From: an uncultured Eubacteriales bacterium | GTDB taxonomy: Bacteria > Bacillota > Clostridia > Lachnospirales > Lachnospiraceae | NCBI GenBank assembly: GCA_949294665.1 | Contig: CASFID010000032.1 | Coordinates: 1-44,646 of the forward strand | Reading direction: 5' to 3' | DNA: 44,646 bases | Shown: one piece after another, positions 10,850 to 44,646 of the stretch | Layout of the letters: each line of letters opens with the position of its first letter | Numbering within the stretch: position 1 is the first letter of the stretch | Position numbers and translations under genes: made by a program | The notes under the pieces: generated by a model | The model's database searches: none | What the model saw: the letters and a program-made list of their open reading frames with translations, nothing else | What the model was told of the DNA's origin: nothing

Positions 10850-10881
10850 ATCAGCAGGTGCGGGACAAGGCGCCTGCTGAT
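10850..10881 (+). terminator. Hairpin between ddh and araB, weak or partial terminator
   Basis: ATCAGCAGG (10850-10858) pairs with CCTGCTGAT (10873-10881), with further GC pairs inside. The downstream sequence TGCTGTAC has no T run, so termination may be incomplete. Confidence 0.4.
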
Positions 10882-10884
10882 TGC

Positions 10885-10893
10885 TGTACAAAA
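10885..10893 (+). promoter_or_regulatory. AraR-like half site upstream of araB
   Basis: TGTACAAAA is an 8/9 match to the reverse complement of the half site at araR (ATTTGTACA). It lies 33 bases before the araB start. No strong promoter was seen beside it. Confidence 0.35.
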
Positions 10894-10925
10894 ATACATA
10901 TAACATCAAAAGGAGGAGTGCTTTA

Positions 10926-12530
10926 ATGCGTAGTAAACAGGAAATCAGAGAGATGATAAGCGACGGACAGGCAGTGCTCGGAATTGAGCTGGGATCGACC
11001 AGGATCAAAGCGGTGCTGATCGATGTGGATAAATCCCCTGTGGCTTCCGGCAGTTACGACTGGGAGAATCAGTATGTGGACCATATCTGGACGTACGATA
11101 TCGACGAAGTGTGGAAAGGGCTTCAGGGCAGCTACCAGGATCTTGTGAAAAATGTACAGGAGGAATACGGCGTCACCATCACGAACCTGGCGGCGGCCGG
11201 AGTCAGCGCGATGATGCACGGTTATCTGGCGTTTGATGGGAACGATGAACTGCTTGTGCCGTTCCGCACGTGGAGGAACACGATCACAGGAGAGGCGTCG
11301 GAAAAGCTGTCAGAGCTTTTTCAGTACCACATCCCGCAGCGCTGGAGTATCGCGCATCTGTATCAGGCGATCTTAAATGGCGAAGGTCATGTGGGCAGCG
11401 TGCGTTTCTTCACAACGCTCTCAGGATACATCCACTGGAAACTGACCGGACAGAAAGTGATCGGAAGCGGCGACGCGGCCGGTATGTTCCCGATCAATAT
11501 CGAGGCGAAAGATTTTGACGGCAGGATGCTGGATCAGTTTGACGAGCTGGTGGCAGACAAGGGATTCCCGTGGAAGATCCGTGAGCTCCTTCCGAAAGTG
11601 CTCCTTGCCGGAGAGGATGCGGGCGCTCTGACGGAGGAGGGTGCGAAACTTCTCGATCCTGCAGGAAATCTTGCGGCAGGAATCCCCATGTGTCCCCCGG
11701 AGGGAGACGCAGGAACCGGAATGACGGCCACAAACAGCGTCGCTGTAAGAACAGGAAATGTATCTGCCGGAACAAGCGTATTTGCCATGGCTGTCCTCGA
11801 GAAAGATCTGACAAAACCGTACGAGGAGATCGATCTGGTGACGACTCCTTCGGGCGACCTTGTGGCAATGGTGCACTGCAATAACTGTACGTCCGACCTG
11901 AACGCCTGGGTTGGGCTGTTCAAAGAATTTGCAGAAAGCTTCGGCGTTGACGTAGATATGAACAAACTGTTCGGTACTCTTTATAATAAAGCGCTTGAGG
12001 GCGATGCCGACTGCGGCGGACTGCTTGCATACAATTACTTCTCGGGCGAACATATCACAGGATTTGACGAGGGACGTCCCCTCTTCGTGCGCTCCCCGGA
12101 GAGCAGATTCAATCTGGCAAACTTTATGCGAGTGAATCTCTATACATCTCTCGGAGCTCTGAAAACAGGGATGGATATCCTGCTCAAGAAAGAAGATGTC
12201 AAACTTGACCGCATGATGGGACACGGCGGCCTGTTCAAGACAAAAGGCGTAGGACAGAGAATACTCGCCGGAGCGATCGATACTCCCGTGTATGTTATGG
12301 AAACCGCAGGAGAAGGCGGAGCATGGGGGATCGCACTGCTGGCGGATTATCTTGTCCGTAAAGAAGACGGAGAGAGTCTGACAGATTACCTTAACAACAA
12401 AGTGTTCCACGATGCAAAAGGTTCGGGAATGGATCCGGTGCCGGAAGATGTGGAAGGATATGAGAAGTTCATGGAGAGATACACAAAAGGACTGGCGATC
12501 GAAAGAGCGGCAGTGGACTGTGATATCTAA
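10926..12530 (+). CDS. araB: FGGY-family carbohydrate kinase, probable L-ribulokinase
   Basis: The 534-residue FGGY kinase should phosphorylate L-ribulose to L-ribulose 5-phosphate. The N-terminal ATPase-fold motif [16 protein letters not shown], the segment [13 protein letters not shown], and [15 protein letters not shown] with [12 protein letters not shown] are typical of the superfamily. The C-terminal phosphate-binding region has [16 protein letters not shown] and [15 protein letters not shown]. The ATG at 10926 has GGAGG 9 bases upstream; the in-frame start at 10881 does not. Context with araD, araA and araR makes ribulokinase the best call, although this branch differs from classical enterobacterial AraB and other pentulose substrates are possible. 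A palindromic repeat begins directly at its stop codon. Confidence 0.85.
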
Positions 12531-12654
12531 ATTCGTGATTGTCAGATAGACTTCTCTTGGCAAAACATCCGAAAACCAATCGGATACAGTGGAATGACTC
12601 ACATATCCGGAACAGTCGGGATTGTAATGCTTCCGGCTCCGGTTACAAAAGGAA

Positions 12655-12769
12655 GATAAACTAATAACCCTGAAATATAGCTAAAAACAATCAGCCAGAC
12701 GGACAACTCACAGTGCTCAGACAAGTCCGCCTGGCTGATTAACGCTATATCTCAGGGTTAAAGTTTATC
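12655..12769. repeat. Central hairpin of unit 1
   Basis: About 38 paired bases in five blocks around a roughly 20-base loop. As DNA it could form a cruciform. As RNA it is a long stem behind araB that could stabilise the 3' end or, with the T-containing outer strand, help termination. Confidence 0.75.
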
Positions 12770-12907
12770 TACCCTTTCTACACAGTCACCGTCCGCATTA
12801 CAATCCCGGCTGATCCGAAAGATGGTTCATATCGGCTGTATCCGATTGATTTTCTGTGCTTATCCAATCGGAAATGTCTCTACAGCAATCGCAGAATTTA
12901 TAGAAAA

Positions 12908-12936
12908 TCGGTTGAAATGGCGAGGTAGTCGAGAAA
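12908..12936 (+). repeat. Direct repeat copy 1 flanking the vanZ remnant
   Basis: A 29-base block containing GTTGAAATGG and GTAGTCGA resembles 13382-13411 in the same orientation, with about 80 percent identity and one indel. The two copies bracket the vanZ-like fragment. Confidence 0.55.
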
Positions 12937-12981
12937 GTTCGTCTTAAATTTCAAAAAATATTAAAGATTTCTATAAGTTAA

Positions 12982-13374
12982 TCTGAAAAATTGCTCCCTT
13001 TTGCCGGTTCGGTTGTGATAAACGGAAAAACGGATATGGACGAGATCGTGAATAATTTTATTGTGTTTATCCCTGTTGGTCTGTATTTGGGAATGCTGAT
13101 GCCGAAAGCATCTCCGGTAAGAAAGATTGCTCCGATATTCGGACTCAGCCTGTTTTACGAAGTGATCCAGTTTATCTTTGCAATAGGCGCCAGCGATATC
13201 ACAGATCTCATCATGAATACACTGGGCGGAACAGCAGGCGTTTTTCTAGTATTTCTGATTTCAAAACTTCTGAAAGACAATACAGTAAAAGTCCTCAATA
13301 TAGCAGCAATCATATGTACAGTCGCAATAACAGCATTCATGGCACTGCTGATAGGGGTGAATTATTTAATCTGA
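12982..13374 (+). pseudogene. VanZ-like membrane protein remnant, 5' end missing
   Basis: The open frame reads SEKLLPFAGSVVIN, then DEIVNNFIVFIPVGLYLGML, then GLSLFYEVIQFIFAIGASDITDLIMNTLGG and two further hydrophobic segments, about 130 residues in all. VanZ-family proteins carry the motif NxxPF, then NxxxFxPxG, then ExxQ....R/D-x-D-Dxx-NTxG, so the core and C-terminal helices are here. The first membrane helix and a proper start are absent: a TAA stands in frame at 12979 and only a TTG (12991), with no ribosome-binding site, precedes the homologous part. It lies between two palindromic elements, so truncation by repeat insertion or rearrangement is likely. A functional short protein cannot be excluded. 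Confidence 0.65.
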
Positions 13375-13381
13375 TACCAAA

Positions 13382-13411
13382 CCGATTGAAATAGGGAACG
13401 TAGTCGATAAA
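13382..13411 (+). repeat. Direct repeat copy 2 flanking the vanZ remnant
   Basis: Partner of 12908-12936. It starts 8 bases after the last codon of the vanZ-like frame and leads into the beta arm of unit 2. Confidence 0.55.
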
Positions 13412-13800
13412 TCTCACCCTTTCGACCAGTTTCCAGTAAATTCCGTGATTATCGGGGAGACACTTCCAATCGGATGAACGCAGAAAATCAGTCGGATACA
13501 GCCCTTTTGATGAACCTTTCAGGACGGGCGGGGAGGGGATGCTGACGGTGACTGTGCAGGAATATTAGACAAAGCTAAAACCTGAGATGCAGCGTTAATC
13601 AGGAAAATGAAATTGTCTGAGTGAAACGAGTTGTTCATTTTCCTGATTGCTTTTAGCTGTATCACAGGTTTGTTACTTTGCCTTATGTTCCGTAACCGGA
13701 GCCGGAAACATTCCCCTCCCCGCCTGTCCTGGATACGTGAGTCAATCCAATGTATCCGAGTGATTTTCGGATGTTTTACCGAGGAAATGTCTCTCGGATA
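13412..13800. repeat. Palindromic repeat element, unit 2 (beta arm, hairpin, alpha arm)
   Basis: Same architecture as unit 1 in the opposite orientation. GAAAATCA (13483-13490) plus TCGGATACA (13492-13500) pair with TGTATCCGA (13751-13759) plus TGATTTTC (13761-13768). Next, 13521-13541 (G-rich) pairs with 13709-13730 (C-rich), with few mismatches. The core is CAAAG/CTTTG, AAACCTG/CAGGTTT and a perfect 14-bp stem (13597-13610 with 13635-13648). The palindrome spans 286 bases against 283 in unit 1. The alpha arm ends about 10-20 bases before the aroA stop (13810). Confidence 0.85.
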
Positions 13801-13809
13801 AATATGGAT

Positions 13810-15099
13810 TTACAGCAACTCCTCAAAGGTATCATAGAATGTCGGATACGACACATCCACGCATCTGCTGTCCAGTATCTTTGTATTCCCCTCCGCTGCC
13901 AGTGCGGCGATACTGAACGCCATCGCGATGCGGTGGTCCAGCAGTGTGTGGATGGATGCGCCTTTGAGTTTCCCTCCGGTGATGATCATGCCGTCGGAGG
14001 TCGGCGTTACATTACATCCCATTGCTTTTAAGTTGTCGCAGACTGTCTCGATCCGGTCCGTCTCTTTCACTTTCAGTTCTGCGGCGTCTTTTATGACAGT
14101 GGTGCCCTCGGCGACAGCTGCCATGACTGCGATGACGGGGATCTCATCGATGAGCGTCGGGATGAGATCGCCCTGGATCGTGATGCCGTGGAGCCGGCTG
14201 GAACGGACAAGGATGTCGGCAATTTTTTCACCGCTCTCGACGCGTTCGTTGAGCAGGGTGATATCTCCGCCCATGTCCTCGCATACTCTGAGAATGCCGG
14301 CGCGCGTCGGATTTATGCCGACGTTTTCAATGAGGATCTCGGAATTTGGAACGATCAGGCCCGCTGCAATGAAGTATGCGGCGGAAGAGATATCGCCGGG
14401 TACGGTGATCTTCTGGCCGTAAAGCTCCTGGCAGGGCGAAATGGCGGCTGTAGCTCTGGTGCTGTCCAGCTCATGTGTGGAGCGGATATCGGCGCCGAAT
14501 TCTCTGAGCATGAGTTCTGTGTGGTTTCGAGAGAGAGACGGCTCAGTGACAGAGGTTACCCCGTCGGCATACAGACCGGCAAGCAGGAGGCAGGACTTCA
14601 CCTGCGCGGAAGCAACCGGGGACTCATAGTGTATTCCGTGGAGTCTGCCGGGAGAAATGTACAGCGGCGCGCAGCCGTTTCTCAGGACGCTCGAGATATT
14701 TGCTCCCATCTGTGTCAGCGGATCTATGATCCGTTTCATGGGGCGGGAGTTGAGTGACTCGTCCCCCGACAGCTTTGACTCGAAAGACTGTCCTGCCAGA
14801 ATGCCCGACATCAGACGTGTAGTTGTGCCGCTGTTTCCCACGTCCAGGATATCGCCCGGGGCGGAAAGTCCGTGAAGCCCTTTCCCATGAACGAGGACGG
14901 TGGAGCCGTTCTCATCGATCTCAATTCCAAGCGTGCGAAAACAGCGTATCGTTGCCAGACAGTCTGCTCCTTTCAAAAAATGATGGATCTCCGTTGTGCC
15001 GCGGGCGATCGATCCAAACATCACACAGCGGTGAGAGATGGACTTGTCCCCCGGGACGGTGATCTTACCTTTTAATCCTGTAATACTGCATAATTCCAT
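13810..15099 (-). CDS. aroA: 3-Phosphoshikimate 1-carboxyvinyltransferase (EPSP synthase)
   Basis: The 429-residue enzyme joins phosphoenolpyruvate to shikimate 3-phosphate, the sixth step of the shikimate pathway. PGDKSISHR near the N-terminus, NSGTTTRLM and LSRNHTELML match substrate-binding loops. DEIPVIAVMAA carries the catalytic aspartate, LKVKETDRI follows, and DHRIAMAFSIAAL is the C-terminal signature. Motif spelling (NSGTTTRLM) resembles class II enzymes of Gram-positive bacteria, but class is not asserted. AAAGGAT lies 8 bases before the ATG at 15099. It follows tyrA by 109 bases on the same strand, so the two aromatic genes probably share a transcript. A palindromic repeat lies directly behind its stop. 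Confidence 0.96.
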   Translation of the reverse strand: MELCSITGLKGKITVPGDKSISHRCVMFGSIARGTTEIHHFLKGADCLATIRCFRTLGIEIDENGSTVLVHGKGLHGLSAPGDILDVGNSGTTTRLMSGILAGQSFESKLSGDESLNSRPMKRIIDPLTQMGANISSVLRNGCAPLYISPGRLHGIHYESPVASAQVKSCLLLAGLYADGVTSVTEPSLSRNHTELMLREFGADIRSTHELDSTRATAAISPCQELYGQKITVPGDISSAAYFIAAGLIVPNSEILIENVGINPTRAGILRVCEDMGGDITLLNERVESGEKIADILVRSSRLHGITIQGDLIPTLIDEIPVIAVMAAVAEGTTVIKDAAELKVKETDRIETVCDNLKAMGCNVTPTSDGMIITGGKLKGASIHTLLDHRIAMAFSIAALAAEGNTKILDSRCVDVSYPTFYDTFEELL

Positions 15100-41842: not shown

Positions 41843-42130
41843 GTAGAGAAAGCGTTGAAGAGGACAGTAAGCTGTCTGTGCATCGACAGAGAGGGATCGC
41901 GGGCTGAAAAGATCCTGTTGTACGGCATGACTGAAGACCACCTCTGAGCGGCCCTAATCAGGCACGGTGATTCCGTTATCATCATATGAATTAAGATGGT
42001 TTTCCATGGAAAACAAGCAGGGTGGAACCGCGGGAATATTTCCCGTCCCTGTGTGGAGTGTTTCCGTGTGACTGCATAGATTTCAGAAAAGTAAGAGACA
42101 TTCCGTGGAATGTCTCTTTTGTTTTCTATA
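41843..42130 (+). promoter_or_regulatory. T-box leader of thrS, Thr specifier ACC
   Basis: The leader has the conserved T-box sequence AGGGTGGAACCGCGGG at 42019-42034. A long stem I region (about 41850-41950) contains the loop sequence GACAGTAAGC on one side. On the other side GAAGACCACC places an ACC threonine codon (41937-41939) at the specifier position; the next triplet is also ACC. Uncharged tRNA-Thr would pair with the specifier and T-box and favour the antiterminator over the terminator at 42094-42126. This fits the downstream threonyl-tRNA synthetase. Confidence 0.92.
42094..42126 (+). terminator. T-box terminator before thrS
   Basis: AGAGACATTCC (42094-42104) pairs with GGAATGTCTCT (42107-42117), followed by TTTTGTTTT. 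It is the conditional terminator of the leader, 79 bases before the thrS start. Confidence 0.9.
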
Positions 42131-44353: not shown

Positions 44354-44420
44354 GCTGTCTCATCCGGTCAGTATGATTTTCCCGGCTGCAGCGTCATCTT
44401 TCAACAGGCACTCATACAAG

Positions 44421-44527
44421 CCGGAAGCATTACAATCCCGACTGCTCAGGATATGTGAGTCAATCCACTGTATCCGCATGATTTTCGGATGTTTTGCCAA
44501 GAGAGGTCTATCCGACAAACACGAATT
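44421..44527 (-). repeat. Alpha arm of palindromic element unit 3
   Basis: Reverse-complement match to the alpha arm at 12530-12640, about 85 percent over roughly 105 bases, with shared blocks TTGGCAAAACATCCGAAAA, GACTCACATATCC and CGGGATTGTAATGCTTCCGG. The matching left arm expected for a full palindrome was not found between 44107 and 44171. The remaining 44528-44646 carries a GCTACGCGAT/ATCGC-type small inverted repeat and no gene. Confidence 0.8.
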
Positions 44528-44646
44528 GAACAAAATCGCTACGCGATGGCCTGCGAAAGCTGTCGTATAGCGATTTTTTTGTTTTCTATAACAAAAACAG
44601 TGGAAAGCAAGTCCTAATAGTAGTATTGTTAAGTTACCACCCAAAA

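What the first reader, a model, noticed from the sequence alone, without database searches (positions are those of the whole stretch)
12530..13800. Family of roughly 285-bp palindromic elements with two related arm types
Two units (palindromes at 12571-12853 and 13483-13768) have the same plan: an outer arm, a long central hairpin and a second outer arm. Unit 1 is alpha-hairpin-beta; unit 2 is beta-hairpin-alpha. Five copies of a core near GAAAATCAnTCGGATACA exist in the window: 12571-12588, 12836-12853, 13483-13500, 13751-13768 and 44469-44486. No transposase, tRNA or known RNA motif explains them. This may be an unnamed MITE-like or REP-like family; I do not recognise it.
Basis: seen in the sequence. 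Interest (0 to 1): 0.72.

Follow-up and report, generated by a model that had tools for sequence, protein, structure and literature searches.

The report
Rod-shaped palindromes docked on stop codons
The two palindromes belong to a large, apparently uncatalogued family of repeated, non-coding hairpin elements in Mediterraneibacter gut bacteria that usually sit right behind a gene's stop codon and share a conserved folded core found beyond this genus; what moves them and what they do is not yet known.

Summary
Both units are long near-palindromes (about 370 bp, larger than reported), inverted copies of each other at 73% identity, folding far better than shuffled sequence. They belong to a repeat family: 54 distinct full-length copies were extracted from own and related genomes (27 of 36 named stretches are Mediterraneibacter).

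(1) One end abuts the stop codon of the neighbouring gene in 43 of 54 copies (29 gene families; 7.8% for random positions). (2) A 109-nt apical core, GUUAA-[stem]-UGUYUGAG..loop..GAGUU-[stem']-UUUUUAG, covaries very strongly and matches no Rfam family. It occurs in 40 of 49 genus genomes (8 with 40 or more copies), 10 of 59 other genera of a family draw and, weaker, in viral contigs. (3) Mismatch asymmetry says the structured strand is antisense to the abutted gene.

Best reading: a mobile or formerly mobile non-coding REP/MITE-like family of nested hairpins, recognised as structured RNA or single-stranded DNA by an unknown factor, with terminator or insulator activity a likely side effect. 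No transposase was found; RVT_1 is absent from several element-rich drafts; the genus's RAYT-like gene has its own, different hairpin. Apparently new family; kind known, several features unusual.

The parts
12528..12897 (+). Unit 1 (A-type, oriented with the upstream gene). Its left end ATTCGTG follows directly on the TAA stop of the FGGY-family kinase gene; its structured (better-folding) strand is minus
12661..12768 (-). Conserved apical core (model R1) of unit 1
   Evidence: 106.2 bits (the model was built with this copy in it)
13437..13812 (-). Unit 2, inverted relative to unit 1, directly behind the TAA stop of the aroA-like (EPSP synthase) gene; structured strand is plus
13569..13676 (+). 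Conserved apical core (model R1) of unit 2
   Evidence: 107.8 bits (the model was built with this copy in it)
13378..13436 (.). Linker hairpin (AACCGATTGAAATAGGG..CCCTTTCGACCAGTTT) of the kind that joins an A rod to a second rod in some relatives
   Evidence: read from the sequence; half of a similar linker lies at about 12900-12940
12991..13374 (+). VanZ-like ORF lacking the N-terminal part of the domain, lying between the two units
   Evidence: PF04892, profile positions 54-125 of 126
10881..12530 (+). FGGY-family carbohydrate kinase whose stop codon unit 1 abuts
13810..15099 (-). aroA-like EPSP synthase whose stop codon unit 2 abuts
44419..44532 (-). Partial A unit: outer end only, then another module type; its outer end touches a repeat that runs to the contig edge and is probably the end of an IS91-like element

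Best explanation
A family of non-coding repeated elements made of nested palindromes ('rods'). SHOWN: many copies per genome; near-identical copies at different places of one genome; orthologous sites with different or no element; in the genus, one end docked on the stop codon of a gene; a conserved apical core whose stems covary while asymmetric internal loops stay fixed; the better-folding strand is antisense to the abutted gene. INFERRED: the elements are, or were, mobile and are recognised as one structured single strand (RNA, or single-stranded DNA during transposition) by an unknown trans-acting protein that binds the fixed loops. Arm-to-arm copying (template switching or gene conversion inside the hairpin) keeps each copy's arms complementary while copies diverge. 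Landing just behind a stop codon harms no gene, and the hairpin there probably works as a terminator or insulator between convergent genes.
For: Multi-copy and mobile-like. Stop-codon docking: 43 of 54 copies, 29 gene families, against 844 of 10800 random positions. Orthologous sites: in 30 of 30 aroA loci the protein ends in FYDTF(E/D)xLL, yet what follows the stop differs between genomes; one gene pair, recognised by eye from its ends, has a 32-bp hairpin in G000, about 795 bp of rods in G002, and rods plus two ORFs in G035. Core: 31 of 34 pairs with change on both sides; covariation 0.803 against 0.261 (sd 0.018) shuffled and 0.14-0.21 slid. Strand: A.C over G.T in the gene-sense strand in 50 of 50 copies; in core orientation G.U 273 to A.C 60 in the genus (40 of 42 rods, 2 ties) and 108 to 66 in other genera (20 rods for, 4 against, 6 ties); antisense strand folds better in 49 of 50. 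Polarity: the gene on the core's 3' side is tail-facing in 93 of 112 (no gene in 14 of 126) and 23 of 32 in other genera (no gene in 1 of 33). Arm copying: in one genome six copies have arms of 57-69 bp that are 95.6-100% complementary within a copy but 58-75% identical between copies.
Against: No transposase, target duplication or excision product was identified. Direct docking on a stop codon is shown for A-type copies of the genus only: in other genera 3 of 23 tail-facing genes on the 3' side and 3 of 13 on the 5' side stop within 15 nt of the estimated rod end (these rod ends are rough). 11 of 54 full copies did not meet the stop test. Gaps between convergent genes can be short, which by itself brings any insertion near a stop. 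Some elements are inherited in place (L404/L410, 94.6% over 1176 bp). The gene on the core's 5' side shows little preference (37 to 24; 13 to 10). Covariation can arise from arm copying without selection for structure. Related sites are not independent. There is no expression data.
Confidence: 0.58

Rival explanations
1. The rods are not mobile now; they are transcription terminators or insulators at gene 3' ends, each stopping transcription that would otherwise run antisense into the abutted gene, and they spread long ago.
For: Position and polarity: most cores point into the tail of a gene. T-rich 3' edge of the core in the genus (mean 9.7 T of 16, with 6.5 A of 16 at the 5' edge; other genera 5.5 and 3.7). 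Some genomes without a rod at aroA have a plain hairpin at or near the stop (G019, G003, G009).
Against: The consensus scan found no terminator at either core of the window (1 site, in an arm of unit 1, 1.1 expected by chance). Near-identical copies within single genomes and several states of one site point to spreading. A terminator needs neither 370 bp nor fixed asymmetric loops.
Confidence: 0.25
2. Non-autonomous ssDNA (HUH) transposition: the rods are hairpin substrates of a Y1 or IS91-type (Y2) enzyme. This would give strand asymmetry, no target duplication and a fixed landing sequence.
For: Strand asymmetry also fits ssDNA, since G.T is tolerated there. The own genome holds a repeat whose end touches a rod end at 5 of 6 places; a 74% relative of its 119 bp in Agathobacter lies just upstream of an annotated integrase and an IS91 family transposase.
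Against: The long RAYT-like Y1 gene lies next to a different hairpin; 0 of 20 such loci hold the core and 1 of 20 has an end-like motif, 2.3 kb away. In these drafts G012 and G035 are element-rich without the long Y1 gene, while G023, G032 and G033 have it and no core hit. The Agathobacter locus has no core. IS91 transposases were not counted over genomes. The contact may only mean that rods are landing sites.
Confidence: 0.2
3. Retro-element: the antisense transcript is copied into DNA at gene ends by target-primed reverse transcription, its 3' UUA matching the TAA stop.
For: The docked end is the 3' end of the structured strand. The outer end is shared by module types with different interiors, and of 101 partial copies 31 keep only this end against 3 only the other (8 both, 40 neither, 19 cut by a contig end); 12 against 3 when short shared ends of other module types are set aside.
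Against: RVT_1 was not found in element-rich G002, G036, G012, G014, G025 and G029, though it is present in G004, G005, G026 and G035 (drafts). Docking also occurs on TGA and TAG stops.
Confidence: 0.08
4. Neutral palindromes: hairpins seeded once and homogenised by replication template switching, without function or mobility.
For: Copy-specific arms nearly perfectly complementary within each copy; few one-sided intermediates in the stems (39 one-sided against 204 two-sided cells).
Against: Template switching would erase the asymmetric internal loops, yet they recur across genera. It does not explain polarity or scattered copies.
Confidence: 0.1

Closest known systems
REP/BIME palindromes with RAYT (TnpA_REP) transposases
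   Same: Multi-copy palindromes in intergenic regions near gene 3' ends, mosaic combinations of modules, possible terminator or stability effects (recalled; the REP paper PMC3733652 was seen only as title and start of abstract in the listing)
   Different: About 370 bp against 20-40 bp; no GTAG tag at the base; direct abutment on the stop codon; conserved internal loops; the genus's own RAYT-like gene is followed by a different hairpin
MITEs
   Same: Non-coding, palindromic ends, many copies, several size classes
   Different: No target duplication and no parent transposase shown; covarying core with fixed loops; strand polarity towards genes
IS91-family / other HUH elements
   Same: Strand-specific hairpins, no target duplication, fixed landing sequences (recalled); a probable IS91-like end touches rod ends in the own genome
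   Different: Rods of about 370 bp hold no HUH gene; no core in the Agathobacter IS91 locus
Structured RNA families of Rfam 15
   Same: Covarying stems, fixed internal loops, wide distribution
   Different: No family at gathering score; permissive scans gave only microRNA and sRNA models below their cut-offs

Membership tests
REP (RAYT-associated) | short (20-40 bp) palindrome with GTAG or CGTC tag at one end (size and tags from title and abstract start of PMC3733652) | tested here: not met
   Unit ends are ATTCGTGTTTG..; about 370 bp
REP (RAYT-associated) | same palindrome flanks the RAYT gene (recalled) | tested here: not met
   0 of 20 RAYT-like loci hold the core; 1 of 20 has an end-like motif, 2.3 kb away
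MITE | terminal inverted repeats | tested here: met
   TAAATTCGTG..CACGAATTTA and variants
MITE | target site duplication | tested here: inconclusive
   By eye, flanks at several states of one site show no direct duplication; the left flank is TAA, TGA or TAG, so a TA duplication is not general
MITE | autonomous parent with the same ends | tested here: inconclusive
   Of end-motif pairs in 7 genomes I read two long intervals: 2.4 kb in G035, whose two ORFs have no Pfam hit, and about 2 kb in G004, where the second motif lies inside a 510-codon frame and may be chance
Target-primed retro-element | reverse transcriptase in the genome | tested here: not met
   RVT_1 not found in element-rich G002, G036, G012, G014, G025, G029 (drafts); other reverse transcriptase models not tried
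Integron attC site | RYYYAAC...GTTRRRY core sites and an integron integrase (recalled) | not tested
   Only noted that copies lie behind many different genes (29 families), not in a cassette array
Intrinsic terminator | GC-rich hairpin directly followed by a U tract | tested here: inconclusive
   T-rich edge in the genus, but the consensus scan of the window found no more than shuffles
IS91-like element | Y2/IS91 transposase gene in the element | tested here: not met
   The units are about 370 bp; the ORF between the two is a VanZ-like fragment
Catalogued RNA family (Rfam 15) | score above the gathering threshold | tested here: not met
   Whole window at gathering: only a T-box at 41846-42053; permissive scans of the units and of 11 related loci gave only hits below the families' cut-offs

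The most novel reading that the evidence does not exclude
A new class of non-coding mobile genetic element: a rod-shaped nucleic acid whose structured strand points its 3' end at stop codons, recognised through a fixed module (GUUAA / UGUYUGA..GAGUU / UUUUUAG) by a widespread but unidentified protein used by both cellular elements and phages, so that gene 3' ends act as its general docking sites.
Probability: 0.3. Interest if true: 0.9.

Novelty: new variant of a known kind. Interest (0 to 1): 0.7.

Why it matters
If right, part of the intergenic DNA of gut Lachnospiraceae is built of an undescribed element family that marks gene ends, and a strongly covarying nucleic-acid module shared with viral contigs is missing from Rfam. 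It offers a test case for three questions: how elements can sit at gene 3' ends without harm, how giant palindromes are kept nearly perfect in bacteria, and which protein reads the fixed loops. It may also explain many contig breaks in these assemblies.

Tried and rejected
Rfam at gathering score and permissively: only a T-box, and microRNA or sRNA models below cut-off. Plasmid and phage record collections with unit 1: no match; two viral-contig hairpins against phages: no match. Autonomous parent: two long intervals read, no transposase seen. RAYT as mover: unlikely for now. RVT_1 as mover: unlikely. K-turn reading of the apex: considered from memory; the Y-G and U-A pairs fit a UGA-bulged hairpin better. 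The first rod-boundary estimate over-extended and was replaced, whose ends are still rough. The first aroA reading and its repeat inside mis-framed loci lying on the other strand; one search replaces them. Paper searches for the sequence, its peptide reading or the element kind: nothing that names it; only listings were seen and no paper was opened.

Rows dropped before counts: searches gave 201 hits; I passed 166 to by hand (133 genus, 33 other), leaving out the same site seen in two loci, hits cut by a contig end, 82-nt deleted copies and weak hits opposite a stronger one; exact repeats were then removed, leaving 126 and 33. The G.U/A.C count used rods with enough flank on both sides (129 genus, 33 other) and removed similar ones (to 42 and 30). 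One search used the 54 of 107 elements that were 335-390 bp long; the 50 that were 360-390 bp. One search examined the 30 of 37 aroA matches that came with loci. One search was given 25 of 87 viral stretches, chosen by eye. One search scored at most 48 candidates per genome, at most 64 and nine, so these are lower bounds.

Full report
WHAT WAS CHECKED. The two palindromes and five cores are present. Folded alone, each unit is far more stable than shuffled sequence. Unit 2 is an inverted copy of unit 1 (73% identity). Searches of the own genome with either unit gave 13 and 16 matching places, self matches included, some covering only one arm or the core.

THE FAMILY. Nucleotide search of 61 genomes found matches in 14, all in the same genus, the own one included. 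A 22-letter pattern from the right arm found 36 stretches in the named genome collection; 27 of the 36 titles say Mediterraneibacter, among them the strain M. catenae SW178, and many names point to chicken gut. From the loci then in hand I extracted 107 distinct elements, 54 of them full length. Sizes form a series: a 32-bp hairpin with only the outer ends (L171), copies of about 165-180 bp without the central hairpin, units of about 370 bp, and composites of about 795 bp in which an A unit, a linker hairpin and a second palindrome (B) fill the space between two convergent genes from stop to stop (L041, L058). A third module type (C) is seen in L173, L187 and L189 and at the window end.

STOP-CODON DOCKING. 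In the orientation of the adjacent gene, the left end (ATTCGTGTTTG..) follows the stop codon of an open frame of at least 60 codons within 12 nt in 43 of 54 full copies; 22 of these are exactly TAA followed by the end. Random positions in the same loci give 844 of 10800. The right end gives 13 of 54. The 43 copies lie behind 29 different gene families. At aroA the protein ends alike in 30 of 30 loci, while the DNA after the stop is a rod-like end in some genomes and unrelated sequence in others. For one convergent gene pair three states exist: 32-bp hairpin, about 795 bp of rods, and rods with two ORFs between them. Outside the genus exact docking is not shown: 3 of 23 tail-facing genes stop within 15 nt of the estimated rod end on the core's 3' side (28 of 93 in the genus by the same rough measure), although single cases such as L241 lie within 6 nt.

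THE CONSERVED CORE. Ninety-nine distinct apical hairpins share a motif. An alignment of 21 diverse ones gives 34 consensus pairs, 31 with changes on both sides; the covariation score is 0.803 against 0.261 (sd 0.018) for shuffles and 0.14-0.21 when partners are slid. Fixed are GUUAA opposite UUUUUAG, and UGUYUGA opposite GAGUU around a small variable hairpin. A covariance model hits 43 of 80 relatives: 40 of 49 in the genus, 8 of them with 40 or more hits (48 being the cap), and 3 of 31 elsewhere. A family-wide draw gave 11 of 60, the own genome included; a class-wide draw gave 7 of 391, the own one included, at a stricter limit with nine candidates scored per genome. The exact 19-letter apex is in 12 of 120 family genomes (none in the own genome), up to 22 times in one, with one match of the reversed control, and in 87 viral-contig stretches. 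Of 25 such viral loci given to the model, 12 match, 13 hits in all, with modest scores; two of these lie between genes that I recall as P2-like M and L. Some viral matches of the 19-mer are not in long hairpins.

WHICH STRAND. Aligning each of 50 full copies with its own reverse complement under symmetric scoring gives, in the gene-sense strand, 642 A.C against 256 G.T mismatches, in the same direction in 50 of 50; C.T exceeds G.A (534 to 200) and A.A exceeds T.T (286 to 144). On the opposite strand these are G.U, G.A and U.U, the mismatches that folded RNA tolerates (general knowledge). In core orientation, non-redundant rods give G.U 273 and A.C 60 in the genus and 108 and 66 in other genera. 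The antisense strand folds better in 49 of 50, by 24.5 kcal/mol on average. Cores point towards the tail of the gene on their 3' side in 93 of 112 cases in the genus (binomial p 7e-13) and 23 of 32 in other genera (p 0.02); related sites are not independent, so the first value overstates the case. On the 5' side there is little preference (37 to 24; 13 to 10). ssDNA would show the same asymmetry, so RNA is not proven.

HOW THE PALINDROMES ARE KEPT. In one single-contig genome (G125) six copies share core and extreme ends, but the arms between them (57-69 bp) are 95.6-100% complementary within a copy and only 58-75% identical between copies. Point-by-point compensation would leave more intermediates, so I infer arm-to-arm copying. 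It follows that covariation alone does not prove selection for structure; the asymmetric loops, which such copying would erase, are the better sign of function.

WHAT MOVES THEM. Not found. RVT_1 is missing from several element-rich drafts and present in others. The genus has a RAYT-like Y1 gene followed by a GTAG-type hairpin of its own, and no core lies near it in 20 loci. In the own genome a repeat, probably the end of an IS91-like element, touches rod ends at 5 of 6 places, so rods are at least landing sites for it. High-identity copies within genomes, often at contig ends, show spreading in at least G025 and G026.

VERDICT. Mobility and a single-strand recognition step are inferred; terminator-like activity is likely but untested.

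Noticed in passing
window 44528-44646; G000 C54, C30, C3, C68, C45 (L432-L437): A 119-bp repeat, 6 places in the own genome (4 full, 2 cut), all identical, most at contig ends; 5 of 6 directly touch a rod's outer end (..ACGAATT or ATGAATT, then GAAC). A 74% relative in Agathobacter lies just upstream of an annotated integrase and an IS91 family transposase, so it is probably an IS91-like end.
   Followed up: partly
L412 2123-2905 and 19 further loci (L413-L431): RAYT-like Y1_Tnp gene (frames of 246-288 codons) in the genus; 19 of 20 loci are of one type, and where the downstream DNA was held a GGGACGTAGT..ACTACGTCCC hairpin or close variant follows the stop. That RAYT-REP pairs are known mainly from proteobacteria is recalled.
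   Followed up: partly
L191 (G035:C85:32800-36200): Two ORFs (316 and 285 codons, no Pfam hit) lie between a B rod and an A rod at a site where relatives have only rods or a 32-bp hairpin: possible cargo.
   Followed up: partly
L244, L252, L259, L376, L384, L391 (G125): Copy-specific arms of 57-69 bp, 95.6-100% complementary within a copy, in elements with a shared core.
   Followed up: yes
L275, L287, L299, L347 (viral contigs): Apex motif in hairpins between co-directional phage genes that I recall as P2-like M and L; the GUUAA/UUUUUAG loop appears flipped there.
   Followed up: partly
window 12991-13374: VanZ-like ORF that starts inside the domain (profile position 54) between two rods, perhaps a remnant.
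   Followed up: no
window 41846-42053: T-box leader just upstream of a class II tRNA synthetase gene with TGS and SAD domains (threonyl type, recalled).
   Followed up: no
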